Below the pieces are notes generated by a model. The model was given only the letters and a program-made list of their open reading frames with translations. It searched no databases and was not told where the DNA came from. The position numbers were made by a program, and so were the translations under genes. Below, in pieces: positions 28,514 through 43,014 of a stretch of 64,000 bases of DNA (its first letter is position 1; the number at the start of each line of letters is the position of its first letter). This stretch comes from an uncultured Lactobacillus sp. (GTDB lineage Bacteria; Bacillota; Bacilli; Lactobacillales; Lactobacillaceae), in NCBI GenBank assembly GCA_947565635.1, contig CANOGU010000001.1, positions 124,001 to 188,000 on the forward strand, in the 5' to 3' direction.

Positions 28514-28532
28514 GTATAAAATTTTTATGATA

Positions 28533-28570: not shown

Positions 28571-28580
28571 TCTTCTTTTT

Positions 28581-30113
28581 CTATTCTGCTATTAATAACA
28601 AAGCTTGATAATCTTTCCGTGGTAAATGAATATATTTATCATTTTCAACTTCTTGATCAAAATCTTCCACTGTTTCATCCCAAGCATTAATAAGCTTGGC
28701 ATGATATTTCTTTCCTTTTGGCAAAAAGCTTAAAACTTCAAACTCTGGCTGATTTTCGCCAAAATAAACTAACCATTTCTTTTCATCTGGTGTTGAACCA
28801 ACTGCTAATTCCCATGTTGGTCCACTTGTGGCCTGTGGATTTACCCAATCAAAGCCATTATCTTTTAGTAAGTCATATAAGAAATTAATTTTCTTTTGAC
28901 TTTCACCATATAATTTTCCTCCATGAGCCCACCAAATTGGACGTTTTGTATGAGGCTTATCAATGTAAGTTTCACCATGAGTACATCCTCCTCCACGTAA
29001 AACCACACGCCAGAAATTGTCCATCATGCCTTTGGCAGTATTGTCACCCCAGCCAAATTCAATATTACCTTCATAGCGACATTCATCATCGATAACCGGT
29101 TTTTGATATTCTTTAATCCATTTTGGAATTATGAAAACATTGTCACTTTGGATGCTTAAATGTGTAATCCAAGGCTTAGTATGATCATACCAATTCTTAA
29201 CTGTATCCTTATGTTGTGGTGGATCATAGAAATTATGAATAGACTCTAGGTGTTGGGACGGATCTTTTTCATGAACGAATTCACCTATTCGATCCCAATC
29301 TTTTAATGGAATTTGTCCTACTAAGTTCATCAAATCATATTCATTTGCAAGTGCCCACCATACATTTTTATATGAAGCAAGGCGTGCAATAATATACTTT
29401 AAGTACCAAAGATTATTTTCTAATCCCATACGAGCAAAGCCCCAACGGTCATAGGGACTAAATAAAATCAAATCAGCCTCTATGCCAAGTTTGTCTAGCT
29501 TATCAATGTTATTTTCCAAATTTTGAAAATACTTTGGATTTGGTCTCGTATAATCAAAACCAGTTTCATGAGCATCAAAAATCCAATCATTCGCTCCACG
29601 CTTATATCTTAAAAATCCTTCAAATGGATATATTTCTGGCTCCTCTTCATTATATGAATAGCTCTTAGGAAATACGAGCATTCTAATTTTATTGAAATTA
29701 TTATTCTTTAGCGTTTCTAGTGTTTCTTCTTGAACCTCTTTTGGTTGTACAGTCCATGCATAAGCCGTAGTTCCAAACGGAATGTAGCTAGTACCATCTG
29801 CATAAGCAAAATGAGTTTTGCCTGCTACTCTAACCGGTCCATGATTATCCTTGCTTGCCTTAGTTACTGTAAAATTATCATTTTTTTCATCTAATTCTGG
29901 AACGTTCGAGTGTGTCGTAACAGTATATTCCCCCTCAACTTCGGGCATGTAGCGAATTTTATATTTTCCATCTCTATCGTAGAATCCATCAACTGTAATC
30001 GAATGATTATTTCTATCAAAAGTTGCACTTAATTCAACATCTCGAAATGGATTTCCATCAGTCGGTCCATCCAATGTTAATTCATATCTTTTCCACTTTT
30101 CTACTTCTTTCAT
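28581..30113 (-). CDS. DUF5060/DUF4038-type glycoside hydrolase
   Basis: Cytosolic protein of 510 residues (no signal peptide) with three parts. An N-terminal beta-sandwich (about 5-85, KWKRYELTLDGPTDGNPFRD) is of the DUF5060 type. A TIM-barrel (about 95-430) begins HFAYADGTSYIPFGTTAYAW. A C-terminal beta domain of DUF5605 type follows. The clan-A catalytic layout is present: N257-E258 in WALANEYD as acid/base and E344 in VIDDECRYEG as nucleophile. The substrate is unknown; relatives lie in plant-polysaccharide loci. It is 14 bases downstream of the MFS gene (broken) on the same strand, and near the GH140-like gene at 35744. A good GAAGGAGAATAAAA ribosome site precedes ATG 30113. Confidence 0.82.
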   Translation of the reverse strand: MKEVEKWKRYELTLDGPTDGNPFRDVELSATFDRNNHSITVDGFYDRDGKYKIRYMPEVEGEYTVTTHSNVPELDEKNDNFTVTKASKDNHGPVRVAGKTHFAYADGTSYIPFGTTAYAWTVQPKEVQEETLETLKNNNFNKIRMLVFPKSYSYNEEEPEIYPFEGFLRYKRGANDWIFDAHETGFDYTRPNPKYFQNLENNIDKLDKLGIEADLILFSPYDRWGFARMGLENNLWYLKYIIARLASYKNVWWALANEYDLMNLVGQIPLKDWDRIGEFVHEKDPSQHLESIHNFYDPPQHKDTVKNWYDHTKPWITHLSIQSDNVFIIPKWIKEYQKPVIDDECRYEGNIEFGWGDNTAKGMMDNFWRVVLRGGGCTHGETYIDKPHTKRPIWWAHGGKLYGESQKKINFLYDLLKDNGFDWVNPQATSGPTWELAVGSTPDEKKWLVYFGENQPEFEVLSFLPKGKKYHAKLINAWDETVEDFDQEVENDKYIHLPRKDYQALLLIAE

Positions 30114-30127
30114 TTTTATTCTCCTTC

Positions 30128-31354
30128 TTATTTAACAGCCTTTGCCGAAGCTTTTTTAGTGTTTCTTGAAACCGCAAGTACTACAAATACCAAGGCAATT
30201 ACTCCTAAAATACCTGCGCTAATTCTCATTTGATCAACCGCAGTAGACAACCCAGTCATTCCACTCAATAAAGCTATTACACATGGTGATGCAAATGCAC
30301 CTAAATTGTTACAAATCTGAGCAATTGAAATAATTAAGTTACTAATGGAACTGTCTACTTCACTTAAAATACTGTCGTAAACATACGAAATAATTAAGCT
30401 TGAAATCATCATCAACAATAAACCAATAAAGAAAATAGTCATATTAGGGGCTTGTGAACACACAATAAATCCAACTGTACCTAAAGAAATTGCGACTACT
30501 GGAGTAAAATTCTTTAGTACTTTGAAAATACGAGCGTATGCCATAGAAATTAGAGCTCCAACCAGACCCGCAATAGCAATTTCGGTAGACAACATCCCCT
30601 GATTTGCCAAATGATTTTGTTGAATAACCAGAGCTGATGCTGTTGCTTCAACCATAAATGCCGAAAAGTATAAAAATAGCATTAAGAACGCAACATAAAT
30701 ACTTGCCGGAATTTTTGCATGCTTAGATCTCTGTTTCTGTTCTTTAGTAGATGATTTTTCAAGAGTAGTTTCTTTTTCCATCTTTGGGGTGTAACCCATC
30801 ATGAATAAAATCAAAAATGGAATAATAAATAGGAAGTAAAGAAAAGTTGCTTGCCACTTAATTCCCAACAAAAGGCCAGCTACAAAAGTCATTGAACTGT
30901 TTCCTAAAGTTCCCATAGCACCTTGAATGCCAATTAAAGTTTTTTATTCTTCTCCACTAAAACAGTCTCCAATTAACGAAACCGCTAGTGATGTAAATAA
31001 ACCAATGCCAGCACCAACCAGTAATCTACTAGCAACAATAATTGCAAAATTACTAATAAAAAACGGTATTAAACCACCGACTATTGTCGTAATCATCCCA
31101 ATAATAACTGTATTTCTTTTACCAACCCATTTAATTACTGCATTACTAAATAAAATGAAAAGCATAATAGTAAGAGATGGTAAAGTGAAGAGAGCTTGTA
31201 CTGAAGTTAAAGATTGATTCGGAAAGGACTTAGCAATCAAAGGAATAGCTGCTAGATTGGAGCCAGCTACCTGCAAGAAAAGTGATATTCCAAGAATTCC
31301 GACTTTTAATTTCCAATTATGTTTATTATCTTGCTTTATTTTTTCAACATTCAT
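30128..31354 (-). pseudogene. MFS transporter with one premature stop codon
   Basis: One continuous frame from ATG 31354 to 30128 would give a 408-residue, 12-helix MFS carrier, but TAA at 30944-30946 ends translation after FSGEE at residue 136. Translation would resume in frame as KTLIGIQGAMGTLGNSSMTF. A Gln codon (CAA) fits the stop, so one C-to-T change explains it. The first part contains the helix 2-3 loop WVGKRNTV and LLVGAGIGLFTSLAVSL. An internal ATG at 30916 could give the last eight or nine helices only. The layout resembles the intact carrier at 15048-16229. Its place before a glycoside hydrolase suggests sugar uptake once. A sequencing error or stop read-through cannot be excluded. 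Confidence 0.85.
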
Positions 31355-31403
31355 TGTTTTCCTCCTTATTTTTACTTGTTTTTCTCACATCTCTATAATA
31401 TTA

Positions 31404-31417
31404 TGTAACCGGTTACA
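31404..31417. promoter_or_regulatory. Perfect CRE/LacI-type palindrome between MFS and regulator genes
   Basis: TGTAACCGGTTACA is a perfect 14-bp palindrome and matches the CRE consensus at every fixed position. It lies in the divergent promoter region of the MFS/glycosidase unit (minus) and the LacI-type regulator (plus). Either CcpA or the local regulator could bind. A half-site TGTAACC recurs near 31494. Confidence 0.7.
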
Positions 31418-31520
31418 TTACAATAAGCAATTACTTAACTAGCACTAAACTAATATTTATTATTACTTGCGCTATAATAGCTGCTGTAACCCAGTATTTT
31501 CAAAATAAGGATTTAAAAAT

Positions 31521-32477
31521 ATGACCATTAGAGATATTGCTAAATTAGCTAACGTATCTGTCGCTACCGTATCTCGAATCATCAATAATTCAGGAAAAGT
31601 AAGCGATAAGACACGATTAAAGGTAAACAAGATAATTGAAGAGACAAACTATCATCCTAATCAAGTAGCTAGAACTTTATATCAAAAGCGTTCAAAAATG
31701 ATTGGAATTATTATTCCTTTTGCTGAAAACATCTTCTACAGTCGAATTATTAATGGAATTCAATCTGTTTTGCAGCCAGCAGGCTACACATGTTTGATAT
31801 CTTTCAGCGTAGGTTCAAACAATAAAAAGTATCAAGCGGCCATCAATAATTTCCTTCAAAATAATATTGACGGTATCATTTCTTCTGCCTTTGAAATGAA
31901 TGAGAATATTTGTCGTATTCCGCTTGTGATGTATGATAGTGCAAACATTTCTGACGATATTATTCGTATAGCTTCCGATAATGCTAAAGGTGGGAAGGAA
32001 AGCGTGAAGTTAATCTCTACTGCCAAAAGAGCTGTCTTAATTCAACATCTTCCTTTAAGCTTGCCAACTGTTAAAGAAAGAGTCACAAGTATTATTAATG
32101 AATTAAAAAAGAGGCACTTGACCTATACTTTACAAGAAATTAGTGAACACGACACTTACAAATTAGTCGCTGAAAAAGCTCTTCATAATATTCAGACTTA
32201 CGATGCTATCATTACAATTAACGATATCTATGCAGCCCATATTTTAAAATTAGCTAGAAAAATGAATCTAAGAGTACCAGCTGACTTTCAATTAGTTGGC
32301 TATGATAATACTGAAATGTCTGAGCTTACTTCACCTACTCTTTCAACGATTGACCAACAACCTGAATTAATTGGCAAAACTGCTGCTAAAAGATTGCTTG
32401 CATTGATTGATGGTAAAAGTTCTACTGAAAATAGTGTGATAGATATTAAAACTGTAAAAAGAGAGTCAACAAAATAA
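31521..32477 (+). CDS. LacI family transcriptional regulator
   Basis: DNA-binding regulator of 318 residues. The LacI helix-turn-helix TIRDIAKLANVSVATVSRII lies at 2-21, followed by the hinge helix NYHPNQVARTLYQKRS. A periplasmic-binding-like sugar domain follows, with IGIIIPFAENIFYSRIINGI, LVGYDNTEMSELTSPTLSTI and DQQPELIGKTAAKRLLALI. It is divergent from the broken MFS carrier and the DUF5060 glycosidase, the likely targets, and convergent with the PTS operon. TATAAT at 31473-31478 is a plausible -10. The inducing sugar is unknown. Confidence 0.9.
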   Translation: MTIRDIAKLANVSVATVSRIINNSGKVSDKTRLKVNKIIEETNYHPNQVARTLYQKRSKMIGIIIPFAENIFYSRIINGIQSVLQPAGYTCLISFSVGSNNKKYQAAINNFLQNNIDGIISSAFEMNENICRIPLVMYDSANISDDIIRIASDNAKGGKESVKLISTAKRAVLIQHLPLSLPTVKERVTSIINELKKRHLTYTLQEISEHDTYKLVAEKALHNIQTYDAIITINDIYAAHILKLARKMNLRVPADFQLVGYDNTEMSELTSPTLSTIDQQPELIGKTAAKRLLALIDGKSSTENSVIDIKTVKRESTK

Positions 32478-32506
32478 GACTTGGCAAACTGCCAAGTCTT
32501 ATTACA
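32472..32506. terminator. Bidirectional terminator between regulator and PTS genes
   Basis: AAGACTTGGCA and TGCCAAGTCTT form a perfect hairpin overlapping the regulator stop. The minus-strand side ends in ATTTTGTT. Confidence 0.7.
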
Positions 32507-32538
32507 GATGATATTGTTTTAATAGTTTTCGTGAACTC

Positions 32539-34731
32539 TTATGCTTGAGTAGCATTATCTGGAATTTCTACTTCTTGATCAACGGTTGCCATTAAAATTT
32601 GATCTTCAAATCTTACTGAATCTCCATTTTTCTTTTCAATAATAATATCATCAAAATTATTAGCATTCGTTACAATAATTGGAACTACTGTGTCATATCC
32701 AGCTGCCTTAATTTTATCTACATCGAATGTCTCAAGTAAGTCACCTTGTTTAACTTTTTGACCTACTTCAACTTTTACCTCGAAATATTTTCCTTTCAAA
32801 TTTACCGTATTAATACCTAAATGAATCAACAATTCAACTCCATTGTCTGACTTTAATCCAATAGCATGTTTAGTTGGAAAAACAGAAACTACTTCACCAT
32901 CAAATGGCGCATGAATTTCATCATTATTTGGTTGAACAGCAATTCCTTTACCAATAGTACCAGCCGAAAAAACTGGGTCATCGACATTTTTTAATTCAAG
33001 TGCAGTACCCTGAACTGGGGATGCAATTCCTTGATCTTTGAATTCAACTCTTTTAACTTTAAAATCTTTCTTTGAAGTAGTAGAGACAATTTTATCGCCC
33101 CAAATTAGAGTACTGATAAAAGCAATTCCAAAAGCGACAAGTAAAGATAGACAAAATCCCATAAAGCTACCATTAATTCCAGCTTTTTGATCAATAAACA
33201 TTGGAATTCCAAAAATACCACCACTAGCAAAGCCTCCAAACATTTTTGCATTTGAAAAAGCAGCGATTGCTCCACCAAATGCTGATCCGATTGATCCAAG
33301 AATAAAGGATTTTTTATGTGGTAATGTAACTCCGTAAATTATTGGTTCTGTTACTCCCAAAAAACCAGAAATAACGGCTGGCCAACCAATTTCCTTAAAT
33401 TTAGAATCTTTAGCCTTTAGAACTAAAGCCAATGCAGCCCCAGTTTGTCCAAAAACTGTACAATATAACATCGCATCAATAGGATCAAAACCACGAGTTG
33501 CTATATTGTTTAAAAAAATAGGTATAAAGGCCCAATGTAGTCCTAGTAACACTACTGCTTGCCAAATACCAGCTAAAATAAACCCAGCTACAACTCTTGC
33601 ATGAGCATAAATCCAAAGAATACTATATGTCAATTCTTCACTAGCCCAAGAAGTTGCTGGTCCTACGACTAAGAAAGTTAAAGGAACAGCAATCATTAAA
33701 GTTATTAAAGGCGTGAAGATAAGCTTTAATGATGAAGGTAGATAGTTGTTTAAAAACTTATACAGAATTGATGCTAGCCATACCGCAATAATTGCTGGAA
33801 TTAGCGTTTGGGTATAATTCATCAAAATAACAGGAATATTAAAGAATTGAATGCTTTGCTTCATCTGATATGCCTGGACTAAAGATGGATAGCAGAGTGC
33901 TGCCCCTATAATTGCTCCAACATATTCATTTATTTTAAATGTTCTAGCAGTTGAAAAGCCTATCATCACGGGTAAAAAGTAAAATAATGCATCCCCTGCA
34001 GCATAAAGAATTAAATATGTGCCACTCTTTGTATTTAATACATGTAAAACAACCAAGAGCGTTAAAAATCCTTTTAATACACCTGCAGCTGCTAAGACTC
34101 CTAAAAATGGTGTAAAAATAGTTGTTAATAATTTTATAAAGCGATTAACTATATTTTTATCTTTATTTGTATTTTCTTTATGATCCTGACTCAATCCTAA
34201 AAGTGGAATTACTTGATCATAAACATCTGCTACGTTGTTTCCAATAATAACTTGATATTGACCACCTGCATGAGCAACGCCCATTACTCCTTTTAATTGC
34301 TTAATTGCATTATCATCAGCTTTGCTTTCATCTTTTAATTTAAAACGTAGTCTAGTCACACAATGAACTAAACTAATTACATTATCTTTACCACCAACTA
34401 GCTTGACTATTTCTTCAGCTAGTTTTTTATCTTTTTCATCTACTTTAGACATTTTCTTTTCTCCTCCACTTATATTTTTCTGCTTTAATAAGTGAACCAA
34501 TGCATCATAATAAAGCTCTACATCTTGACCTAAAAGGATTTGTAACTGTCCATCTTCAAACTCACTTTCTGAAATTGCTGGAATCAACTTTAGTTTTGGA
34601 TAGTTTACTTTCTTTGAATCTTTTAAATAGAACCTTAGCCTTGAAATACAGTTGAATACTTCATTAATATTTTCTGCTCCACCAACTGCAACCAAAATTT
34701 TTTCCGCTACTTCTTTATAACTGTTATTCAT
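32539..34731 (-). CDS. Beta-glucoside-type PTS permease EIIBCA with an extra N-terminal IIB domain
   Basis: Membrane permease of 730 residues that imports and phosphorylates a sugar, probably an aryl- or alkyl-beta-glucoside. Order: a first IIB-like domain (1-90, FNCISRLRF, Cys28), a second IIB (about 100-175, VHCVTRLRF, Cys124), the IIC domain with about ten helices (195-545, including WPAVISGFLGVTEPIIYGVT), and a C-terminal IIA domain (570-715, LLIHLGINTV, His637). An exceptionally strong ribosome site, GGAGGAGAAAAGAAA, stands before the in-frame ATG at 34452 (residue 94, MSKVDEK). A normal 637-residue EIIBCA may therefore also be made from that start. It follows the antiterminator gene by 5 bases. 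A GH1/GH3 phospho-beta-glucosidase is absent nearby. Confidence 0.88.
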   Translation of the reverse strand: MNNSYKEVAEKILVAVGGAENINEVFNCISRLRFYLKDSKKVNYPKLKLIPAISESEFEDGQLQILLGQDVELYYDALVHLLKQKNISGGEKKMSKVDEKDKKLAEEIVKLVGGKDNVISLVHCVTRLRFKLKDESKADDNAIKQLKGVMGVAHAGGQYQVIIGNNVADVYDQVIPLLGLSQDHKENTNKDKNIVNRFIKLLTTIFTPFLGVLAAAGVLKGFLTLLVVLHVLNTKSGTYLILYAAGDALFYFLPVMIGFSTARTFKINEYVGAIIGAALCYPSLVQAYQMKQSIQFFNIPVILMNYTQTLIPAIIAVWLASILYKFLNNYLPSSLKLIFTPLITLMIAVPLTFLVVGPATSWASEELTYSILWIYAHARVVAGFILAGIWQAVVLLGLHWAFIPIFLNNIATRGFDPIDAMLYCTVFGQTGAALALVLKAKDSKFKEIGWPAVISGFLGVTEPIIYGVTLPHKKSFILGSIGSAFGGAIAAFSNAKMFGGFASGGIFGIPMFIDQKAGINGSFMGFCLSLLVAFGIAFISTLIWGDKIVSTTSKKDFKVKRVEFKDQGIASPVQGTALELKNVDDPVFSAGTIGKGIAVQPNNDEIHAPFDGEVVSVFPTKHAIGLKSDNGVELLIHLGINTVNLKGKYFEVKVEVGQKVKQGDLLETFDVDKIKAAGYDTVVPIIVTNANNFDDIIIEKKNGDSVRFEDQILMATVDQEVEIPDNATQA

Positions 34732-34736
34732 TTACA

Positions 34737-35579
34737 TTACCTATCTGCAACCGCAATATGATGAATATGGATCGTTAAGTACATAATTTCATCTTGCGGT
34801 ACTTTATAATCAAACTTTTGCATCACAATTCCTGTGATTCTTTGTGAAATTAAATATTCCTTATGATAGCGGTGAACAACCATGCTATAAAGTTCTTTAT
34901 CAACACTAGATTCTTGGATTTGCTTTTTTGAAATTCTCTGAGCAAAAAATTTTAGATGAGTTACTAACCGATAATAAGCAACTGATTTTGAACTAATTTC
35001 TATATTTAACATTTCACTAATAATATCTAAAAGCCTATTAATTAATTCAATTGTTCCGGCTGTATGTTCAAGTGAGTTTCCTTCTTCAGCAGTAATTAAA
35101 TGCATTGCAATATTAGTTGCCTCATCTTCTGGAAATTTTAAATTTTCACTTTTTTCTAAATAATAAAGGACCCGCTTTCCTAATTGAAACTCATCCGGAT
35201 ATGTTTGCATCGTTTCAATTGTTAAACGATTCTGAATCGGCATTCCCTTCTTTATCCTTTCAACTGCAAACTGCAAATGGTCTGGCAATGATAAATAAAT
35301 ATCGTCGCTTAACTTTTTACCTGAACTTGCAATTGCTTCTGAAATAATTTGATCAGATAATTCAATATATTTTGGATCAATGCTAGCTAGCATTTCACTC
35401 ATTGAGTTAGTATCTTTTTCATTTTTTGGATAAAATACTTTTTCAACTCTCTCTTCACCAATAACTTCACCTGCCTTTTTATGAAAGGCAATTCCATTTC
35501 CTAAAGCTACTAATGTTTGCTTATGCTTATCTGTAGCAACAACAGCGTTATTGTTAAGAACTCTTTTAATTAGAAACAT
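34737..35579 (-). CDS. BglG/LicT family transcriptional antiterminator
   Basis: RNA-binding antiterminator of 280 residues. The CAT RNA-binding domain is at 1-55 (IKRVLNNNAVVATDKHKQTL, VALGNGIAFHKKAGEVI). Two PTS regulation domains follow: PRD1 with DHLQFAVERIKKGM and NIAMHLITAE, and PRD2 with VTHLKFFAQRIS and YLTIHIHHI. The conserved histidines for PTS phosphorylation are present. It binds the RAT hairpin in its own leader and prevents termination when the substrate PTS is active. A GAAAGGTAAATTAT ribosome site precedes ATG 35579. First gene of the operon with the EIIBCA gene. Confidence 0.93.
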   Translation of the reverse strand: MFLIKRVLNNNAVVATDKHKQTLVALGNGIAFHKKAGEVIGEERVEKVFYPKNEKDTNSMSEMLASIDPKYIELSDQIISEAIASSGKKLSDDIYLSLPDHLQFAVERIKKGMPIQNRLTIETMQTYPDEFQLGKRVLYYLEKSENLKFPEDEATNIAMHLITAEEGNSLEHTAGTIELINRLLDIISEMLNIEISSKSVAYYRLVTHLKFFAQRISKKQIQESSVDKELYSMVVHRYHKEYLISQRITGIVMQKFDYKVPQDEIMYLTIHIHHIAVADR

Positions 35580-35596
35580 ATAATTTACCTTTCAAT

Positions 35597-35674
35597 AAAA
35601 AATGGCAAGACTCAATAAACCTAACTTAAAATAATTTAGATTTATTTGGTCTTGCCAACTTAATGTAACAATCC
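35597..35674 (-). promoter_or_regulatory. RAT antiterminator site overlapping an intrinsic terminator
   Basis: On the minus strand GGATTGTTACATTAAGTTGG and CAAGACC (plus 35648-35674) match the ribonucleic antiterminator of LicT/BglG systems. Its 3' half is also the 5' stem of a terminator: GGCAAGAC (plus 35649-35656) pairs with GTCTTGCC (plus 35604-35611), with AAATAAA/TTTATT pairing inside and six T after. The two structures are mutually exclusive, so BglG binding should allow transcription of the PTS operon. Confidence 0.9.
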
Positions 35675-35707
35675 GATTTCTTATTCAGTTATAAGCATAG
35701 CATTTAA

Positions 35708-35721
35708 TGTAAACGATTGCA
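35708..35721 (-). promoter_or_regulatory. CRE-like site upstream of the PTS operon
   Basis: TGCAATCGTTTACA on the minus strand matches TGWAANCGNTNWCA at all fixed positions except the third. It lies about 35 bases before the RAT, near the expected promoter, so CcpA repression by preferred sugars is likely. Confidence 0.6.
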
Positions 35722-35743
35722 ATAAGTGCTACATTAGTTTAGC

Positions 35744-37042
35744 TTAGTTTAGTTGCTTATCTATAATTATGAGTTCATCTTCTAGCACTGGCAGCATTTT
35801 AAGGACATTATTTTCTACTTGACCTTCTAAAATACTTCTATTATTTAAATCAATAACTTTACAATTATTTATATGTAAATCTAATTTATTAAAATCTAAA
35901 TTTCCAGCTGTTGGTAAATAAATTAAGATATAATTCTCACTTTCCGCGCCTCTAATTGCTTTACTTACATCAATATTAAGCGGTTTTAAACCATTAGGAG
36001 CAAATTTAGTTAAAATGGCTTTCAGAAATCCTAAATCCTTAGCACCACGAAAAGTTAAACAGGTCCTCCAGTCGTATGGTACAAGTTGAACGTTAAAATT
36101 TTTCTCTAACTTCTGCTCAGGATGACTAATATCTTTCCAAGGCCATATTCCAAAACTTCCATAACCTAGGCCTGCATCAGCTCCCGATAAAACTGCTCGC
36201 CAAGCAGCCTTTCGTACATCGAATGCATTATAGCGTTTAGGTTCTGGCGAATGCATTTGGGTCAAGCCTTCATAACAAAGTTCGGTATCAATAATCGGTC
36301 CCTGATAATCTTGTTTTTCACGTAAAGCTAATGGAATAGTATAGGCAGTTTTTTGACCGCTATAACCATGACCAGATTGATAACTATAAAAACTAACTTG
36401 CTTAACAAATTCTTCTGGCAAATCATGACTCTCTCCATTAATGTGAAAAGTGTATATGCCAGCTGGATCTACACTTTTGGCACTCTCTAGCACTTCTTGA
36501 TAATACTTAATTGCCGTTTGGCGATTTTGTCTTTCATTATTAGTGAATCCCACATCCCCACTTACAAACCAAATTGGATTAAATCTTTTAAATTTATTAA
36601 CTACGCAAGTAACATAAGGTTTAATGCAATCAAATGGCATTAAATTATTTTGAGCAAGGTGAAGATTATCAATCCAATTATCTGGAATGAAATTGCTCCA
36701 GAGTAAAACCAGTGCTGGAACCATGTTGCGCTTTTTCATCTCTTCCAGCATTTTAACTGCATTATCAAAATACTCCTCGTTTATCTTAGTAAAATCATAT
36801 TCATATGACCCATCCGGGTGCTCTACGACTGTGAATGGTTCTCGTCCTTTTAATGGTTTACTAGAATCCCATTGGCGTAATATATTAATTTGAATAGCAT
36901 TAAATCCTTCAGATTTTCTCATATCAAGATAATATCGCCAATCTGGCATTGTAATACTAGTAAAGGCTCCCCAACAAGTATCAGCTAAATAAAATAGTTT
37001 TTCTCCATTTTTATACAAATATTTGCCTTTTGTTGATAACAT
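35744..37042 (-). CDS. GH140-like (DUF4038) glycoside hydrolase, putative apiosidase
   Basis: Intracellular protein of 432 residues with a DUF4038 TIM-barrel (about 1-345) and a small C-terminal beta domain. The start KYLYKNGEKLFYLADTCWG is typical of GH140 enzymes, of which the characterised member removes apiose from plant rhamnogalacturonan II. Two candidate catalytic acids fit GH140: Asp163 in WFVSGDVGF and Glu254 in PIIDTELCYEG. I prefer ATG 37042 with GAGG upstream; ATG 37093 would overlap the isomerase gene by 23 bases and lacks a ribosome site. It directly follows the isomerase gene, so its released sugar is probably the isomerase substrate. Apiose specificity is inferred from family and context. 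Confidence 0.75.
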   Translation of the reverse strand: MLSTKGKYLYKNGEKLFYLADTCWGAFTSITMPDWRYYLDMRKSEGFNAIQINILRQWDSSKPLKGREPFTVVEHPDGSYEYDFTKINEEYFDNAVKMLEEMKKRNMVPALVLLWSNFIPDNWIDNLHLAQNNLMPFDCIKPYVTCVVNKFKRFNPIWFVSGDVGFTNNERQNRQTAIKYYQEVLESAKSVDPAGIYTFHINGESHDLPEEFVKQVSFYSYQSGHGYSGQKTAYTIPLALREKQDYQGPIIDTELCYEGLTQMHSPEPKRYNAFDVRKAAWRAVLSGADAGLGYGSFGIWPWKDISHPEQKLEKNFNVQLVPYDWRTCLTFRGAKDLGFLKAILTKFAPNGLKPLNIDVSKAIRGAESENYILIYLPTAGNLDFNKLDLHINNCKVIDLNNRSILEGQVENNVLKMLPVLEDELIIIDKQLN

Positions 37043-37070
37043 TCTTTTACATTCCTCTTTAATACTTAGC

Positions 37071-38531
37071 TTATTTGTGTTTCTGCTCATCATCCAAAAT
37101 ACTATCTAAATCGCCGTACCAATAAGCTGCAACCTTATCCTTAATTGGATCATAATAATCTGGACTTACATTAATGTACTTACATGCTTCTGCTAAAATA
37201 GGTACAACATCAGCTCGTACACCAGCCATATGATGGATATATGGTCCATAAACATATTTTGCTTCAAATCTATTCAAATCCTTAAATTGGAACCAGGCAT
37301 AGGTCCCTTGTTCATATGGTCCATCACAAGTTTTAGCATTACCAATTAACATTGAATACTTACCGTGATCACCATCAAATCGCACTAAGGTATAGGTTCC
37401 ATCTTTAGCTTCAAAAGCAGCTGAGCCAGGATAGTCAAAAACAAAATGTGAAGGTGGTAAAATTGGCCGATTTTTTGCTGTTTGAAAGGCGAATGTACCT
37501 AAGTGCTGTAATAATTCACCATTCTCATTTTCGGGATGGCGACAGTTAACATCCGCAAATATGGCTCGTTCATCACCCAAAGTAGCACTTTCTGCTAATA
37601 ATTCAGAAATAGCACCATTAATATCTGTCTCACAAGTTACGGGCATGCCTTCGGTTTGAAGTAGTGCTTCAGAAGCATAAGGTAAAATACCGATTTCCCT
37701 TTGCAACTCAGTCCAACATTGAATTGTACCTGCATTGCAACCATATTCCTTCATCTTATCTTGCATAGCAAGTTTCAAAGCAGCTACTTTGGTGAAATCT
37801 TCATCTTTAATTTTAATATCAGCCCAATTACGATAGGTTTCTTTTGTTTCCTCAATTCTAGAATCCTTTTTGTCAATTAACTCATACATATAAGAAGTTA
37901 ACTCTCCTAAAGGAATTGGTGAAAGTTGAATACCAAACTTTTCTAATAACTCTCCTTCATTAACGATCACTGACCAAAAGTCAAAGGGACGAGTACCAAT
38001 TTGTAAAATTCTTGTATTCTTAAAAGTTTTAACTACATTACATACTTTGATAAAATCAATCATCCCTCTACTAAAAGCAGGATCGTCAATATCGCTATTT
38101 TTAATGTAGGTAAACGGGACATTAAAGTGACGTAAAACTTTTCCAATCGCAAATAATCCACACTGTGTATCCCTTCTACGTGAGCCGTCGGGAGCTGGAG
38201 CTTCATCTTTTGGACCCCAAAGTAATACCGGGACATTAAGTTTAGCAGCTAATCTTGCCACTTCATACTCAGTACCAAAATTCTCATTAGCAATGAACAA
38301 CCCATCAATTTTTGCTTTCTTGAATTTCTCAGTAATCTTTTCTAATCCATCATCGTCGTACAGAAGTCCGTCATCATTTACTTCTTTAATGTCAACATAA
38401 TTGACACCTAGTTCATCTAATTTTTCACGTGTTTTATTTGCAAATTCAATTGCTGCTGTTGCAGAAAAAATGTTTCTTCTTGTTGGTGCAAAGCCAATCT
38501 TAATTTGTTTTAAACTATCATAATTAGTCAT
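37071..38531 (-). CDS. L-fucose/L-arabinose isomerase-like protein, putative D-apiose isomerase
   Basis: Aldose-ketose isomerase-like protein of 486 residues of the FucI/AraA structural class, which uses a manganese-type metal site. The N-terminal Rossmann part starts QIKIGFAPTRRNIFSATAAI; the middle has GTRPFDFWSVIVNEGELLEK. Possible metal ligands are Glu in LQREIGILPY, Asp in CETDINGAISE and the C-terminal His pair in YGPYIHHMAG. It is more divergent than true fucose or arabinose isomerases. ATG 38531 has GAGAGG 8 bases upstream; ATG 38537 lies too close. It heads a unit with the GH140-like gene and is divergent, across the regulator, from the transketolase/kinase genes. Conversion of apiose to apulose is inference; another pentose is possible. 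Confidence 0.72.
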   Translation of the reverse strand: MTNYDSLKQIKIGFAPTRRNIFSATAAIEFANKTREKLDELGVNYVDIKEVNDDGLLYDDDGLEKITEKFKKAKIDGLFIANENFGTEYEVARLAAKLNVPVLLWGPKDEAPAPDGSRRRDTQCGLFAIGKVLRHFNVPFTYIKNSDIDDPAFSRGMIDFIKVCNVVKTFKNTRILQIGTRPFDFWSVIVNEGELLEKFGIQLSPIPLGELTSYMYELIDKKDSRIEETKETYRNWADIKIKDEDFTKVAALKLAMQDKMKEYGCNAGTIQCWTELQREIGILPYASEALLQTEGMPVTCETDINGAISELLAESATLGDERAIFADVNCRHPENENGELLQHLGTFAFQTAKNRPILPPSHFVFDYPGSAAFEAKDGTYTLVRFDGDHGKYSMLIGNAKTCDGPYEQGTYAWFQFKDLNRFEAKYVYGPYIHHMAGVRADVVPILAEACKYINVSPDYYDPIKDKVAAYWYGDLDSILDDEQKHK

Positions 38532-38552
38532 ACTCATTACCTCTCAAATTTA

Positions 38553-38566
38553 TGTATTCGCTTACA
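38553..38566 (-). promoter_or_regulatory. CRE/LacI-type palindrome before the isomerase gene
   Basis: TGTAAGCGAATACA on the minus strand differs from the CRE consensus at one fixed position. It lies about 22 bases before the isomerase start, overlapping the expected promoter or early leader, and resembles the site at 39743. Confidence 0.6.
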
Positions 38567-38631
38567 CAAATTACAATAACTAGTATTTCCTAACACATCA
38601 ATAGTTAATTTACTTAATTAAACTTAACTAG

Positions 38632-39651
38632 CTATTTTAATGATTCTCTTACAATTAGTTTTGTCGAGATAAAGCTTTTCTGGCTAAGCCAATGCGTATT
38701 ACTTACTTTTTCTTCTAGTTGATTAATTGCCTGTCTAACGATTTGTTCAATCGGAACGTGAATTGTTGTTAATTCCGGATTAATCATTGTATCCTCAAAA
38801 ATATCATCAAAACCCATGATTGCCAATTGGTCAGGGATTTTAATACCAATTTTGGTTAATTCTTTAACTAAACGTAGAGCCATATAATCATCTTCACAAA
38901 AAATTGCATGCGGATATTTTTTATTCGAATAGAAAAATTTAGGTAATGTTCCCCTCAATTCAACTGGATTTAAACTAAAGACAAAGTCTGGCGGAATTTC
39001 AAGATTTTTTTCTTTTAGAGCAGTTCTAAAACCCTCTCTTCTCTTCAAAAAATTAGTAATTATCCGATTTGATGCAACATAACCAATCTGTGTGTAACCT
39101 TTTTCTATAATAAACTTTCCAGCATTATATCCTCCTTGAAAGTTATCAATTGAAACAAAGTCTGCATCTACATCTTCAAAATAATTATCAATAAAGATAG
39201 CATTCTTAATTTTAGAATCTAAGAATAGAATTTGTTTTTTATTTAAATCTGTTGCTAGAACAATCGCCGCCTTACTTTTCTTTAGAGCAGTACTATTTTC
39301 GATGTCTTGTTTCAAATTTCGAATATTTAAAGTAACAATTTGAACTTGTCCACCAGATCCACCAACATTTTGAGAAAGATTAGATACTAATGAATCAAAA
39401 AACGGTAAACTTGCATAACTTCGATTCATTAACCCTGTAGTAGTCTTAATAATTACTAAGCTAATGCTAGTTAATTTTCTCACACCGCCCTTTTTATGCT
39501 TTCTTAGTGGTTCATAGCCCATTTCTTCTATTACTTTAAAAATATGCTTCCTCGTTTTTTCACTTACTTCTGCTTTTCCATTTAGTGCAAAAGAGACAGC
39601 CGCTTTTGATACACCTGCTTTTTCTGCAATATCACTCATCTTTAATTTCAT
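38632..39651 (-). CDS. LacI family transcriptional regulator of the putative apiose locus
   Basis: Regulator of 339 residues. The helix-turn-helix KMSDIAEKAGVSKAAVSFAL and hinge helix MGYEPLRKHKKGG are at the N-terminus. The sugar-binding domain follows, with DFVSIDNFQGGYNAGKFIIE, IGYVASNRIITNFLKRREGF and LAIMGFDDIFEDTMINPELT. It sits between the isomerase unit (minus) and the transketolase/kinase unit (plus), the classic position for their local repressor. The palindromes at 38553 and 39743 are candidate operators. The ligand is probably the sugar or its ketose; that is inferred. Confidence 0.9.
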   Translation of the reverse strand: MKLKMSDIAEKAGVSKAAVSFALNGKAEVSEKTRKHIFKVIEEMGYEPLRKHKKGGVRKLTSISLVIIKTTTGLMNRSYASLPFFDSLVSNLSQNVGGSGGQVQIVTLNIRNLKQDIENSTALKKSKAAIVLATDLNKKQILFLDSKIKNAIFIDNYFEDVDADFVSIDNFQGGYNAGKFIIEKGYTQIGYVASNRIITNFLKRREGFRTALKEKNLEIPPDFVFSLNPVELRGTLPKFFYSNKKYPHAIFCEDDYMALRLVKELTKIGIKIPDQLAIMGFDDIFEDTMINPELTTIHVPIEQIVRQAINQLEEKVSNTHWLSQKSFISTKLIVRESLK

Positions 39652-39742
39652 TTTTTATTTCTTTCTTAAATAAATTTACTAATCTAAACTAAACTAATTA
39701 AATAATTAATCTATGTTAACTATAAACATGATACCCTCATTT

Positions 39743-39756
39743 TGTAAGCATTTACA
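39743..39756 (+). promoter_or_regulatory. CRE/LacI-type palindrome before the transketolase genes
   Basis: TGTAAGCATTTACA is a near-perfect palindrome 29 bases before the aptA-like start. It differs from the CRE consensus only at the central G, which is more like a local LacI-type operator than a strong CRE. A TATAAA box at about 39721 is a plausible -10 just upstream. Confidence 0.55.
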
Positions 39757-39784
39757 AGATAATAAACAAATTGAGGTGTTTCTA

Positions 39785-40618
39785 ATGGATAGTTTAAGTT
39801 TAAAGAAAAAAGCCATTCAATTAAGGAAAAGAACATGGCAACTAATCTATCGTCATCATAACGGTCACACAGGTTCAGACCTATCATGTACTGATATTTT
39901 AGTTGCTCTCTATTATGGCGTTCTCAACCAAACTCCCGATACTTTTGAAGACAAAAACTCTGATACCTATATTCAAAGTAAAGGACATGCAGTAGAAATT
40001 TGGTACGAAATTCTTGCTGACAAAGGATATATTGATCAAGAAGATTTAGATAGACGGTACTCCACTTTTAATAGTCCCTACATTGGTCATCCAACTACTG
40101 ATGTAAAAGGAATGGAATTTCATACAGGCTCTCTTGGTCATGGACTTGGTTTAGGCGTTGGCGTTGCTTTAGCTGCAAAAATGGATCATTTAAAGAAACG
40201 TACTTTTGTTTTAATGGGTGATGGTGAACAAGCAGAAGGATCTGTTTGGGAAGCTGCTATGGCAGCAAGTAACTACAGCTTGGACAATTTAACTGCAATT
40301 ATTGACCACAATGACTTACAAATTACTGGTACAACGGACTCAGTTATGCGTTCTAATCCACTTAGTAATAAATATGAAGCATTTGGTTGGGATGCGATTG
40401 AAGTAAACGGTAACAATATTGATGCTTTAGTAGATGTTTTAAATAAGCCAAATAACACCGGAAAACCAAGAGTTATTATTGCTAACACAGTTAAAGGTAA
40501 AGGAATTACCGTTGCAGAAAATCGGGCAGATTGGCATCACAAAATACCGACTAAAGAAGAGTATCAAGAAGGATTACAAGAATTAGATACACAGCTGGAG
40601 GGACTTAACAATGACTAA
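39785..40618 (+). CDS. aptA: Transketolase N-terminal subunit (putative apulose-4-phosphate transketolase A)
   Basis: Thiamine-diphosphate-binding half of a split transketolase, 277 residues. The TPP motif GDGEQAEGSVWEAAMAASNY begins near 145 and ends in IDHNDLQITG. HTGSLGHGLGLGVGVALAAK near 115 and the N-terminal YRHHNGHTGSDLSCTDILVA with active-site histidines are typical. ATG 39785 has GAGGTG upstream; the earlier ATG 39713 has none. It overlaps the second subunit by 8 bases. Split transketolases occur in several pathways; here the partner isomerase, FGGY kinase and GH140-like enzyme fit cleavage of apulose 4-phosphate, which would give dihydroxyacetone phosphate and a two-carbon unit passed to an acceptor. 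The general enzyme class is certain, the substrate is inferred. Confidence 0.85.
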   Translation: MDSLSLKKKAIQLRKRTWQLIYRHHNGHTGSDLSCTDILVALYYGVLNQTPDTFEDKNSDTYIQSKGHAVEIWYEILADKGYIDQEDLDRRYSTFNSPYIGHPTTDVKGMEFHTGSLGHGLGLGVGVALAAKMDHLKKRTFVLMGDGEQAEGSVWEAAMAASNYSLDNLTAIIDHNDLQITGTTDSVMRSNPLSNKYEAFGWDAIEVNGNNIDALVDVLNKPNNTGKPRVIIANTVKGKGITVAENRADWHHKIPTKEEYQEGLQELDTQLEGLNND

Positions 40619-41552
40619 AGAAGAAAAACTATCTGCCAATACAGTTATCGCTGATACACTAGACAAAGCAACTAAAGTTGATCCTAATTTGTTAGTTGTA
40701 ACCTGTGACTCACGTGGCTCTGCAGGGTTAGTTAATTTTACTAATGCTCATCCCGATCGCACTGTTGAAATGGGAATTGCTGAACAAAATGCAGTTACAG
40801 TTGCTGCAGGTATGGCTCATGCCGGAAAGCATCCCTTTGTTTTCTCACCAGCGGCTTTCCTAGCAATGAGATCAATTGAACAAGTCAAAGTGGATGTTGC
40901 ATTTAACCAAACTAATGTTAAATTAATTGGTATTTCTGGTGGCAACTCCTACACTTGGCTCGGAACAACATATCATTCTTTAAATGATGTAGCTATTACT
41001 CGTGCTATTCCTAATCTTGAAGTCTATCAACCATGTGATCAATATCAGACTAGAGCACTTTTCAATTATCTGCTTACCTCACCTCGTCCAGCTTACGTTC
41101 GGATCGGTAAAAGAAAACTTGATAATGTTTATCACGAAGATTTTAAGTTTGAACCTGGAAAAGCAAAAATTATTCGCAAAGGAAAAGATGTTTGTCTAAT
41201 TTCTGTTGGTGAAATGCTTTATTTCACTCTCCAAGCTGCTGAAAAATTAGCAAAAAATGGTATTGATGCTGAAGTTGTTGATTTAGCATCAATTAAACCT
41301 TTGGATGCTGAAATGCTTGATAAACTAGCACAGGAATTTAATCAGATAGTTACTGTTGAAGAACATGATCTAATCAATGGAATCGGTAGTGCTGTAGCAG
41401 TTGAAGTAGCTAAATTTGGACATGCTAAATTAACAATTTTAGGATTTCCTGATGAACCAGCTATTCAAGGAACACAAGATGAGGTCTTCCACTATTATGG
41501 CTTGGATAGTGCAGGTATTGAAAAAGCAGTTGAAGACCTCCTCACGCATTGA
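40611..41552 (+). CDS. aptB: Transketolase C-terminal subunit (putative apulose-4-phosphate transketolase B)
   Basis: Pyrimidine-binding and C-terminal half of the split transketolase, 313 residues. VEMGIAEQNAVTVAAGMAHA near 51-70 has the Glu that activates thiamine diphosphate. KLIGISGGNSYTWLGTTYHS and ALFNYLLTSPRPAYVRIGK follow. The C-terminal domain (about 185-310) has GKDVCLISVGEMLYFTLQAA. CTGGAGGGACTTAACA precedes the ATG inside the end of the first subunit gene, so expression is coupled. It needs that subunit for activity. Followed 10 bases later by the FGGY kinase gene. Confidence 0.85.
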   Translation: MTKEEKLSANTVIADTLDKATKVDPNLLVVTCDSRGSAGLVNFTNAHPDRTVEMGIAEQNAVTVAAGMAHAGKHPFVFSPAAFLAMRSIEQVKVDVAFNQTNVKLIGISGGNSYTWLGTTYHSLNDVAITRAIPNLEVYQPCDQYQTRALFNYLLTSPRPAYVRIGKRKLDNVYHEDFKFEPGKAKIIRKGKDVCLISVGEMLYFTLQAAEKLAKNGIDAEVVDLASIKPLDAEMLDKLAQEFNQIVTVEEHDLINGIGSAVAVEVAKFGHAKLTILGFPDEPAIQGTQDEVFHYYGLDSAGIEKAVEDLLTH

Positions 41553-41562
41553 GGCATTTCTT

Positions 41563-43014
41563 ATGACTGAAAAATATATTTTAGCAATTGATCAAAGCAC
41601 CCAAGGAACTAAGGTACTTCTAATCAATCATCAGAATCAAATTTTCTTCAAGGCTTCCCTTTCCCACCAACAGCTCATTAATGAAAATGGCTGGGTGAGT
41701 CATAATTTAAATGAAATAAAAAATAATCTAAAACAGCTATTTAAGCAGATTCTTGAAAAAGTTGATTCTAGACAACTTGAAGCCGTCGCTATTACCAACC
41801 AACGTGAATCGGCAGCTGCCTGGTCTCGAAGAACTGGTGAACCGCTTTGCTATACTATTGTTTGGCAAGATAATCGCTCAGAACAATTAATCAATCAAAT
41901 TACATATCCAGAATTAGCTAGAAAAGTAAAAAACAAAACTGGTTTAGCTCTTTCTCCATATTTTACTGGAGCCAAATGGGGTTGGATGCTTTTAAATGAA
42001 CCCAGAGTGATTCAAGCACATGCTAACAATGACCTCTGCTTAGGAACAATAGACTCTTGGCTAGTTTATCAACTCACTAATGGCGAATCTTTTAAGACTG
42101 AAGTTTCTAATGCTTGTCGAACTGAGCTAATGAATATAAAAACTGGAACATGGGATCAGGATTTAGGTGAAATTTTTGGTATTGATCTCAATGATCTTCC
42201 TAAAATTGTTGATTCAAATGCTAATTTTGGTGAAACTAATTTATTTGGTCTCATTCCTCATAAAATTCCTATTCTTAGCGTTTTAGGTGATTCTCAAGCT
42301 GCCTTATTTGCTCATGGGTGTTTTAATCCTGGTGACTTTAAAGTTACGTTTGGAACTGGTTCTTCTGTGATGTTAAATATAGGTAATAATTTACCAAAAA
42401 ATATTAATAATCAGCTTAATACATCTCTTGCCTGGTCAATTAATGGTAAAAAATCTTACGTTCTTGAAGGAAATATTAATTATGCAGGAGCTTGCGTTAC
42501 ATGGTTAAAAGACAAGCTACATTTAATTCACGATCCGTCTGATACTACTATGCTGGCCCTAACCGCTAATCCAAATGATCATACTATTTTAATTCCGGCT
42601 TTTGCTGGACTTGGCGCTCCTTATTGGCTCCCTAATATGAAAGCTGCATTTGTTAATATGACAGCTACCACTGGTAAAAAAGAATTAGTACGTGCCACTC
42701 TAAATTCATTAGTTTATCAAATCAATGATATTCTACAGGCCTTTCATCACTTTTCTTCTCAAGTGAACAGTGAAATTCATGCTGATGGTGGAATGATACA
42801 AAATAAATATTTAATGCAATATTTAAGTAATATCACTCAAAAAAATGTAAAGATTGCTGAAGTCGCTGAGTTAAGTGCTCTGGGAACTGCGATGAATTCA
42901 ATGCAACAATTTGATGGGATGCATTATTCTAAAACTTATATTCCTCGAATGGACAAACATGCAGCAAATAAGTATTCAAGTGAATGGTCTTCTTGGATAA
43001 AAAAATTATCATAA
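41563..43014 (+). CDS. FGGY family sugar kinase, putative D-apulose kinase
   Basis: Cytosolic kinase of 483 residues. The N-terminal ATPase motif ILAIDQSTQGTKVLLI lies at 5-20, AVAITNQRESAAAWSRRTGE near 82-101, IVWQDNRSEQL near 107, GTIDSWLVYQLT near 160, and the C-terminal FGGY part GDSQAALFAHGCF..GTGSSVML and FAGLGAPYWLPNMKAAF. Its closest general look is glycerol kinase/xylulokinase. ATG 41563 has GAGG overlapping the previous stop; an upstream in-frame start at 41452 lies inside the transketolase gene. As last gene of the transketolase unit it most likely phosphorylates the ketose that the transketolase cleaves. The apulose assignment is inferred; glycerol or another polyol is the main alternative. 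Confidence 0.8.
   Translation: MTEKYILAIDQSTQGTKVLLINHQNQIFFKASLSHQQLINENGWVSHNLNEIKNNLKQLFKQILEKVDSRQLEAVAITNQRESAAAWSRRTGEPLCYTIVWQDNRSEQLINQITYPELARKVKNKTGLALSPYFTGAKWGWMLLNEPRVIQAHANNDLCLGTIDSWLVYQLTNGESFKTEVSNACRTELMNIKTGTWDQDLGEIFGIDLNDLPKIVDSNANFGETNLFGLIPHKIPILSVLGDSQAALFAHGCFNPGDFKVTFGTGSSVMLNIGNNLPKNINNQLNTSLAWSINGKKSYVLEGNINYAGACVTWLKDKLHLIHDPSDTTMLALTANPNDHTILIPAFAGLGAPYWLPNMKAAFVNMTATTGKKELVRATLNSLVYQINDILQAFHHFSSQVNSEIHADGGMIQNKYLMQYLSNITQKNVKIAEVAELSALGTAMNSMQQFDGMHYSKTYIPRMDKHAANKYSSEWSSWIKKLS

What the first reader, a model, noticed from the sequence alone, without database searches (positions are those of the whole stretch)
28581..43014. Putative plant-apiose utilisation locus in a gut lactobacillus
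Seen: divergent from one LacI-type regulator are, on minus, a FucI/AraA-like isomerase and a GH140-like (DUF4038) hydrolase with Asp163/Glu254, and, on plus, a split transketolase and an FGGY kinase. Known: D-apiose can be catabolised by isomerisation to apulose, phosphorylation by an FGGY kinase and cleavage by a two-subunit apulose-4-phosphate transketolase; the characterised GH140 enzyme is an apiosidase. Inferred: the island releases apiose from plant apiosides and feeds it to glycolysis. A second clan-A glycosidase, a beta-glucoside PTS and a broken MFS carrier nearby suggest uptake of apiosyl-glucosides. I do not know of a description of this route in lactobacilli.
Basis: partly seen in the sequence, partly recalled or inferred. 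Interest (0 to 1): 0.85.

Follow-up and report, generated by a model that had tools for sequence, protein, structure and literature searches.

The report
Apiose-eating gene cluster in lactobacilli
A gut Lactobacillus carries a gene cluster that very probably lets it take up plant compounds carrying the rare branched sugar apiose, cut the apiose off and ferment it by a route known from other bacteria.

Summary
In detail: 28581-43014 has a FucI/AraA-type isomerase, a two-gene transketolase, a GlpK-like FGGY kinase and two PF13204 glycosidases around LacI regulators, plus a beta-glucoside PTS with LicT. The apiose reading is well supported, not proven. The four core genes share a locus in 75 of 80 loci examined (of 396 found). 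In 397 Lactobacillaceae genomes the split transketolase is in 23 of 23 isomerase carriers and has no close copy elsewhere; PF13204 genes are in 17 of 23 carriers against 7 of 374 others. The transketolase halves are 45% and 36% identical to AptA/AptB of E. coli SE15; other strains with that cluster grow on D-apiose (PMC13001218). Against: the isomerase is only 26% identical to enterobacterial cluster isomerases, the kinase tree is unresolved, and one module kinase scores as GlpK. The new element is upstream: the apiosidase-like enzyme has no visible signal peptide and lies within 2 kb of a PTS permease in 26 of 30 loci, suggesting PTS import of apiosyl-glucosides and cleavage inside the cell. 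New variant of a known kind; no activity was tested.

The parts
28581..30113 (-). Second clan-A glycosidase, DUF5060-PF13204-DUF5605, 510 aa; acid/base candidate E258 (NE motif), nucleophile candidate E344
   Evidence: PF13204 63.7 bits, DUF5060 79.4, DUF5605 47.8; PDB 4n0r, 336 bits; N257, E258, E344 invariant in 14. Roles of the residues are inferred from the clan-A pattern
30128..31354 (-). MFS carrier, interrupted by an in-frame stop (ORFs 30128-30916 and 30944-31354); intact 408-aa copies in L053 and G037
31404..31417 (.). 14-bp palindrome between LacI1 and the MFS-glycosidase genes; probable LacI1 operator
   Evidence: function inferred
31521..32477 (+). LacI-family regulator 1
   Evidence: family models, all below their cut-offs
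32539..34731 (-). Beta-glucoside PTS permease EIIBCA with an extra N-terminal EIIB-like stretch, 730 aa
   Evidence: TIGR01995 814.7 bits, cut-off 614.7; two EIIB stretches
34737..35579 (-). LicT/BglG-type antiterminator
   Evidence: NF046042 LicT 283.8 bits, just below its cut-off of 300
35590..35680 (-). Stretch with a terminator hairpin and a sequence resembling a LicT target (RAT), upstream of licT-PTS
   Evidence: -25.4 kcal/mol, z -5.0, 0 of 200 shuffles as good; RAT resemblance is from recall; no Rfam match up to E 0.1
35708..35721 (-). cre-like site upstream of licT
   Evidence: cre consensus recalled
35744..37042 (-). GH140-like (PF13204) hydrolase, no signal peptide seen by eye; catalytic pair D180/E271 in the 449-aa numbering (D163/E254 from Met18). 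The ORF as listed runs to 37093
   Evidence: (261 bits)
37071..38537 (-). FucI/AraA-superfamily isomerase, proposed D-apiose isomerase; E303, D305, D329, H436 invariant in 27 superfamily members
38553..38566 (-). Operator- or cre-like site before the isomerase
   Evidence: function inferred
38632..39651 (-). LacI-family regulator 2, between the divergent arms
   Evidence: an ORF whose best window match is this gene lies in 70 of 80 loci
39743..39756 (+). Operator- or cre-like site before the transketolase
   Evidence: function inferred
39785..40618 (+). Transketolase N-terminal half (AptA-like, 277 aa)
   Evidence: 44.8% identical to AptA of E. coli SE15 over 268 residues
40611..41552 (+). Transketolase C-terminal half (AptB-like, 313 aa)
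   Evidence: 35.8% identical to AptB of E. coli SE15 over 313 columns
41563..43014 (+). FGGY kinase, GlpK-like, proposed apulose kinase (483 aa)
   Evidence: 34.0% identical to AplK of E. coli SE15; 33% to GlpK of relatives

Best explanation
This is an apioside-utilisation locus. The PTS permease (and once the now-broken MFS carrier) brings in apiosyl-glucosides or apiose-containing saccharides. The two PF13204 enzymes, probably cytoplasmic, release D-apiose. The isomerase turns D-apiose into apulose, the FGGY kinase makes apulose 4-phosphate, and the two-subunit transketolase moves a two-carbon unit to glyceraldehyde 3-phosphate, giving xylulose 5-phosphate and dihydroxyacetone phosphate. Phosphoketolase can split xylulose 5-phosphate into glyceraldehyde 3-phosphate and acetyl phosphate, so the acceptor is regenerated. 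LacI2 represses both divergent arms; LicT antitermination and carbon-catabolite control govern the PTS. Shown: gene content, linkage, homology, conservation of likely catalytic residues, a phosphoketolase gene in the genome. Inferred: every substrate, transport, flux, the regulators' ligands and sites. The reaction scheme is from established knowledge of the apiose transketolase pathway (recalled).
For: All four core genes in 75 of 80 loci (tblastn over 60 bits within the fetched locus; the 80 are the best of 396); of the five exceptions three lie on contigs under 10 kb, L125 near a contig end, and L107 lacks the kinase. Split transketolase in 23 of 23 isomerase carriers, no close copy in the 374 other genomes. 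PF13204 in 17 of 23 carriers against 7 of 374. Transketolase halves 44.8% and 35.8% identical to AptA/AptB of E. coli SE15; all split transketolases in the tree lie on one side of a 100/100 branch from four full-length ones. Cluster-bearing E. coli, E. fergusonii and Pectobacterium grow on D-apiose, K-12 does not (PMC13001218, section 19 read whole). Sodalis, Rahnella and Klebsiella records hold ABC - DUF2291 - transketolase halves - isomerase - kinase. Three window-type loci (L119, L126, L131) carry an ABC binding protein 51-60% identical to those of Sodalis and Rahnella; that of L126 has PDB 5ibq as best match (309 bits), an entry that I recall as solved with alpha-D-apiose. The window kinase scores below GlpK cut-offs (460/437 against 590/498) like AplK (495/490), where three GlpK of relatives score 720-726/836-862. 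Phosphoketolase in 23 of 23 carriers. Monoglobus pectinilyticus has the module next to a DUF5060 enzyme.
Against: No activity is known to me for this isomerase clade; it is only about 26% identical to the enterobacterial cluster isomerases, which I equate with ApsI by cluster position and recall. The kinase tree leaves AplK, GlpK and two groups of module kinases unresolved, the window kinase is about as close to GlpK (33%) as to AplK (34%), and the module kinase of L131 passes both GlpK cut-offs (597/608). In G171 the kinase gene is in two ORFs. The GH140-like enzyme is remote from solved PF13204 structures (37-48 bits), and PF13204 is broader than GH140. 37 of 80 loci show neither PF13204 type in the fetched DNA, and 6 of 23 Lactobacillaceae carriers had no match (one of them, G089, does have the second type beside the module; G377 and G066 have the module near a contig end). 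In some lactobacilli the module lies beside a ribose-type ABC operon. The binding proteins of E. coli SE15 (37-42%) and Monoglobus (25-28%) are less like those of L119/L126/L131. The 5ibq ligand is recalled, not checked.
Confidence: 0.8

Rival explanations
1. A sulfoquinovose (sulfo-transketolase or sulfo-transaldolase) pathway: the isomerase acts on sulfoquinovose and the transketolase cuts sulfofructose.
For: The only NCBIfam match of the isomerase is SftI, sulfoquinovose isomerase (95.8 bits); a split transketolase occurs in sulfo-TK clusters (recalled).
Against: 95.8 bits is far below the cut-off of 700, while another Lactobacillaceae protein (L032) next to a fructose-6-phosphate-aldolase-like gene scores 420 and, with six kin, lies across a 100/100 branch from the window isomerase. 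The isomerase of the Sodalis cluster scores like the window's (118.7). The sulfo pathways as I recall them need a sulfo-sugar reductase and use no sugar kinase; a kinase match is present in 75 of 80 loci. I did not search the loci for such a reductase.
Confidence: 0.03
2. A pathway for another pentose or branched ketose (for example ribose, D-arabinose, L-xylulose or hamamelose), with the transketolase cutting a different ketose phosphate.
For: FGGY kinases and FucI/AraA isomerases serve many sugars; LacI2 is nearest to ribose repressors though below cut-off (161 against 382); ribose-type ABC genes lie next to the module in L055, L056, L058, L059, L072, L076 and L129 (clusters identified by one member each).
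Against: Ordinary pentoses feed the housekeeping transketolase and need no dedicated split one (general knowledge); the split transketolase goes with the isomerase in 23 of 23 carriers, PF13204 genes are strongly associated, and the transketolase is nearer to AptAB than to full-length enzymes.
Confidence: 0.12
3. The core is an apiose pathway, but the two glycosidases and the PTS act on something else (for example plain aryl-beta-glucosides), and apiose arrives free.
For: PF13204 is broad; the window enzyme is remote from solved members; many loci of Clostridia have the core without a PF13204 enzyme in the fetched DNA.
Against: Linkage of PF13204 genes to the module (12 of the 13 carriers with the strong type have it within about 6 kb of the isomerase); conserved catalytic pair.
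Confidence: 0.2

Closest known systems
D-apiose degradation I, transketolase route (MetaCyc PWY-8089; aptA, aptB, aplK, apsI) of Pectobacterium and other bacteria
   Same: FucI/AraA-superfamily isomerase (by my reading of the Sodalis, Rahnella and Klebsiella clusters), GlpK-like FGGY kinase, two-gene transketolase; AptA/AptB of E. coli SE15 45%/36% identical
   Different: LacI instead of the 'sugar-binding transcriptional regulator', no ABC-DUF2291 transporter in the window, isomerase only about 26% identical, glycosidases and PTS in the same locus. PMC13001218 (passage) says that Bacteroides and Clostridia of the gut were already shown by Carter 2018 to degrade apiose, so the pathway in gut anaerobes is not new
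Apiose cluster of E. coli SE15 (ECSF_RS02670-02715)
   Same: aptA, aptB, aplK; growth on D-apiose published for other strains with the cluster
   Different: Lacks the isomerase and has two SDR oxidoreductases instead (PMC13001218)
Listeria monocytogenes cluster (L134), which I equate with lmo1031-1036 by gene order
   Same: LacI - isomerase - transketolase A/B - kinase - beta-glucoside PTS - DUF4038 protein in one run
   Different: One continuous order without the divergent arms or LicT. The one paper that one search found (PMC2996996, passages only) lists lmo1031-1035 in a table of lineage-specific or unevenly distributed genes, with no pathway named there
GH140 / PF13204 proteins (PDB 3kzs and 5msy, 4qfu, 8t9w 'Apiosidase')
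   Same: Aligned catalytic Asp and Glu with 4qfu and 3kzs
   Different: Low sequence similarity (37-48 bits); window enzyme looks cytoplasmic and PTS-linked. GH140 has been annotated in Lactobacillus crispatus from human faeces before (PMC7230607, passages)
PDB 4n0r putative glycoside hydrolase
   Same: 336-bit relative of the second glycosidase (residues 3-486)
   Different: Activity not known to me

Membership tests
D-apiose transketolase pathway (PWY-8089) | Two-subunit apulose-4-phosphate transketolase (AptA/AptB) | tested here: met
   By homology only: two adjacent genes, 44.8% and 35.8% identical to E. coli AptA/AptB, on the same side as these against four full-length transketolases, with a long-branch warning. 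Activity not tested
D-apiose transketolase pathway (PWY-8089) | Apulose kinase (AplK) | tested here: inconclusive
   34% identical to AplK and 33% to GlpK; below GlpK cut-offs like AplK, but L131's module kinase is above them; tree unresolved
D-apiose transketolase pathway (PWY-8089) | D-apiose isomerase (ApsI) | tested here: inconclusive
   About 26% identical to enterobacterial cluster isomerases, 66 shared invariant residues in 20 sequences, apart from SftI-like proteins at 100/100. No sequence labelled ApsI was available
D-apiose transketolase pathway (PWY-8089) | Activity on apiose / apulose / apulose 4-phosphate | not testable with these tools
   needs enzymes
GH140 apiosidase | PF13204 catalytic domain with Asp acid/base and Glu nucleophile | tested here: met
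   35744-37093: 261 bits, cut-off 26.5; D180/E271 invariant in 27, aligned to Asp/Glu of 3kzs and 4qfu; catalytic roles recalled
GH140 apiosidase | CAZy GH140 assignment and beta-apiosidase activity | not testable with these tools
Sulfoquinovose isomerase SftI | NF048012 score over 700 | tested here: not met
   95.8 bits
Glycerol kinase GlpK | TIGR01311 over 590.35 or NF000756 over 498 | tested here: not met
   460.2 and 436.8
Beta-glucoside PTS IIABC | TIGR01995 over 614.7 | tested here: met
   814.7

The most novel reading that the evidence does not exclude
Lactic acid bacteria run a phospho-apioside route: the PTS phosphorylates the glucose O6 of 2-O-apiosyl-glucosides (apiin type) on entry, and a cytoplasmic PF13204 enzyme is a new kind of apiosidase that acts on 6-phosphoglucosides; in some species a neighbouring arylesterase-like enzyme first removes the 6-O-acyl group that would block phosphorylation.
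Probability: 0.35. Interest if true: 0.65.

Novelty: new variant of a known kind. Interest (0 to 1): 0.5.

Why it matters
Apiose is assumed to be in the cell walls of all higher plants and occurs in more than 1,200 plant metabolites (abstracts of PMC10602597 and PMC10602602, seen in the listing). It would also suggest a function for genes annotated as 'L-fucose/L-arabinose isomerase family', 'transketolase' and 'glycerol kinase' at the 396 loci found, and mark an isomerase clade far from the enterobacterial one.

Tried and rejected
Sulfoquinovose pathway: set aside on isomerase score, tree and presence of a kinase. Glycerol metabolism: window kinase below both GlpK cut-offs, though a kin in L131 is above them. 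The ABC transporters beside some Lactobacillus loci were first thought to be apiose importers; the one binding protein checked (L059) is closest to ribose-binding proteins, and a PfkB-type kinase (identified in L058) and a small gene that I take for RbsD, unchecked, lie with it. A shared operator for LacI2: a TGTAAGC-type element stands before both arms in the window and in some close species (10 of 88 upstream regions of 44 loci, L053-L096, against 19 of 1760 mononucleotide shuffles); the pattern was chosen after looking at the window and fits a cre site as well, so it is suggestive only. Rfam: no match in 26000-45500 up to E 0.1. Kinase tree: no resolution. Isomerase hits at 21-25% identity (20 of 43 genomes) were not counted as carriers; the seven looked at (L026-L032) form a separate clade. 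Rows left out: alignment A3 used the window and 26 of the 30 GH140-like loci (left out L053 and L059, and L081 and L082 as near copies); the trees used 21 (kinase), 22 (transketolase) and 14 (isomerase) of the 80 loci; two loci chosen for the kinase tree (L099, L102) fell out by the length or score filter. Papers: on apiose, 50 on Listeria; 'apulose' gave no paper.

Full report
WHAT IS THERE. Pfam and NCBIfam name a beta-glucoside PTS (814.7 bits, over cut-off), a LicT-type antiterminator (283.8 bits, cut-off 300), two LacI regulators, transketolase N- and C-terminal halves, an FGGY kinase, a strong PF13204 'Apiosidase-like' protein (261 bits) and a second, weaker one with DUF5060 and DUF5605. 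The isomerase has only two weak matches: Fucose_iso_C below cut-off (24.4 against 29.3) and sulfoquinovose isomerase at 95.8 bits against a cut-off of 700; a profile of 12 relatives finds no solved structure up to E 0.1. Better starts are 37042 for the hydrolase, 39785 for transketolase A and 41563 for the kinase.

THE MODULE IS REAL AND CONSERVED. In 20 of 20 fetched Lactobacillaceae regions (20 of the 22 carrier genomes besides the window's own) isomerase, both transketolase halves, kinase and a LacI gene lie together; in G171 the kinase is in two ORFs and in L046 the LacI gene is only 34% identical. A scan of titled genomes found 396 relatives, of which the best 80 were kept. By tblastn (over 60 bits) 75 of these 80 loci have all four core genes; of the five others L077, L098 and L118 lie on contigs under 10 kb, L125 near the end of an 11-kb contig, and L107 lacks the kinase. 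An earlier count by ORFs gave 67 of 80; the difference comes mainly from genes hidden by longer overlapping ORFs in my filter. Hosts include Lactobacillus, Companilactobacillus, Lactiplantibacillus, Enterococcus, Streptococcus, Marinilactibacillus, Lachnospiraceae, Pectinatus and Synergistaceae.

CO-OCCURRENCE TEST. Three searches of 397 Lactobacillaceae genomes (same count, same handles where listed) were compared. 43 match the isomerase; 23 at 61-100% identity are counted as carriers, and 20 at 21-25% are not. The split transketolase is in 23 of 23 carriers at 61-100%; the next match in any genome is 32% (123 bits). PF13204 is in 17 of 23 carriers and 7 of 374 others (Fisher p about 1e-19); the strong type, one contig-edge fragment included, in 13 of 23 against 2 of 374 (p about 1e-16), and in 12 of those 13 it lies within about 6 kb of the isomerase, in one on another contig. 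One carrier (G089) has the second glycosidase type beside the module though one search missed it. These p-values ignore shared ancestry. Of the 25 same-genus genomes listed, the window's own included, 5 are carriers.

LINK TO APIOSE. The founding paper (Carter 2018) is not held. A 2026 paper (PMC13001218; section 19 read whole, other parts as passages) names aptA, aptB, aplK and apsI, places the query cluster at ECSF_RS02670-02715 of E. coli SE15 and reports growth on D-apiose by three other E. coli strains and an E. fergusonii with the cluster and by Pectobacterium, but not by K-12; no gene was knocked out in what I read. I fetched the SE15 region. Window transketolase halves are 44.8% and 35.8% identical to AptA and AptB, the kinase 34.0% to AplK. 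A tree of joined halves puts all split transketolases, AptAB included, on one side of a 100/100 branch from four full-length ones, with a long-branch warning. The kinase tree does not resolve GlpK, AplK and two groups of module kinases. Profile scores of AplK, of the Sodalis and Listeria kinases and of the window kinase fall below both GlpK cut-offs, but the L131 module kinase passes both, so the score is no clean divider. Sodalis, Rahnella and Klebsiella records carry ABC-DUF2291-regulator-transketolase halves-isomerase-kinase; their isomerase is about 26% identical to the window's over its length, shares 66 invariant residues with 17 module isomerases, and lies on the same side of a 100/100 branch from seven SftI-like proteins. 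In L119, L126 and L131 the window-type module stands with an ABC transporter whose binding protein is 51-60% identical to the Sodalis and Rahnella ones and 37-42% to that of E. coli SE15; the Monoglobus one is unlike (25-28%). The best solved relatives of the L126 protein are 5ibq and 4ry0; that 5ibq holds apiose is recalled.

UPSTREAM PART. The GH140-like enzyme has invariant D180 and E271, aligned to Asp and Glu of 3kzs and 4qfu. Its N-terminus and that of the second glycosidase show no signal peptide by eye. A PTS EII gene lies within 2 kb of the GH140-like gene in 26 of 30 loci, nearly all of them Lactobacillales; L059, L068, L075 and L089 are the exceptions. Some loci add a BD-FAE/arylesterase-like gene (cluster in 15 loci, one member identified, below cut-off for the arylesterase model) or a GH1 (cluster in 13 loci, one member identified). 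Celery flavone apiosylglucosides carry 6''-O-acetyl or malonyl groups (abstract of PMC10278068 in the listing) and apiin is a 2-O-apiosyl-glucoside (abstract of PMC10706860, same listing), so the glucose O6 is free once deacylated. From this I infer PTS uptake with phosphorylation and intracellular apiose release. This is the newest and least certain part.

REGULATION AND ENERGY. A RAT-like stretch and a terminator hairpin stand before licT (-25.4 kcal/mol, z -5.0), with a cre-like site upstream; operator-like elements stand before both arms and a palindrome before the MFS gene. Phosphoketolase is present in 23 of 23 carriers, so xylulose 5-phosphate can return glyceraldehyde 3-phosphate to the transketolase; this flux is inferred.

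RECENT EXCHANGE. Against sister genome G037 the block 27930-45068 is 99.4% identical. The searched stretches outside it are mostly 95-96%, with pieces at 82-90% and gaps (window 1-12000, 15000-27000 and 45000-57000); 12001-14999 was not searched. This suggests recent transfer or recombination of the whole island between near species. The left end of the block was set by the end of the fetched region.

VERDICT. The core is a known pathway with a divergent isomerase; the PTS-linked, probably cytoplasmic apiosidase-like enzyme and the spread in lactic acid bacteria are the new elements, as far as the searches named above can tell.

Noticed in passing
window 27930-45068: This block is 99.4% identical to sister genome G037 while searched stretches on either side are mostly 95-96%, which suggests recent exchange of the whole island between near species.
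   Followed up: partly
L034:4521-5971 (G171): In this carrier genome the kinase gene is in two ORFs, so the module may be non-functional there or the assembly in error.
   Followed up: no
L075:11467-12813: In Lactobacillus jensenii DSM 20557 the GH140-like ORF seems, by eye in alignment A3, to run in frame into the EIIA end of a PTS permease, as if a deletion had fused the two.
   Followed up: no
L032:148-2832 (also L026-L031): SftI-like isomerases in Lactobacillaceae (L032 420 bits, below the cut-off of 700), in L032 next to a fructose-6-phosphate-aldolase-like gene: possible sulfoquinovose use by a sulfo-transaldolase route.
   Followed up: partly
window 32539-34731: The PTS permease has a second, N-terminal EIIB-like stretch; by length alone, many relatives of about 630 aa lack it.
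   Followed up: no
L134 (NZ_LR134403.1) and NZ_CP030101.1: Listeria records listed as plasmids (407 kb with rnjA; 2.9 Mb) that look chromosomal; the first holds the same isomerase-transketolase-kinase-PTS-DUF4038 cluster, the second at least the isomerase.
   Followed up: partly
L164:1851-3673 (G038): Another split transketolase pair in Lactobacillaceae, 32% identical to the window's in its N-terminal half, in a genome without an isomerase match.
   Followed up: partly
window 24871-28467: A glycerate kinase and, by eye, old-yellow-enzyme-like and nitroreductase-like genes lie just outside the island on the minus strand.
   Followed up: no
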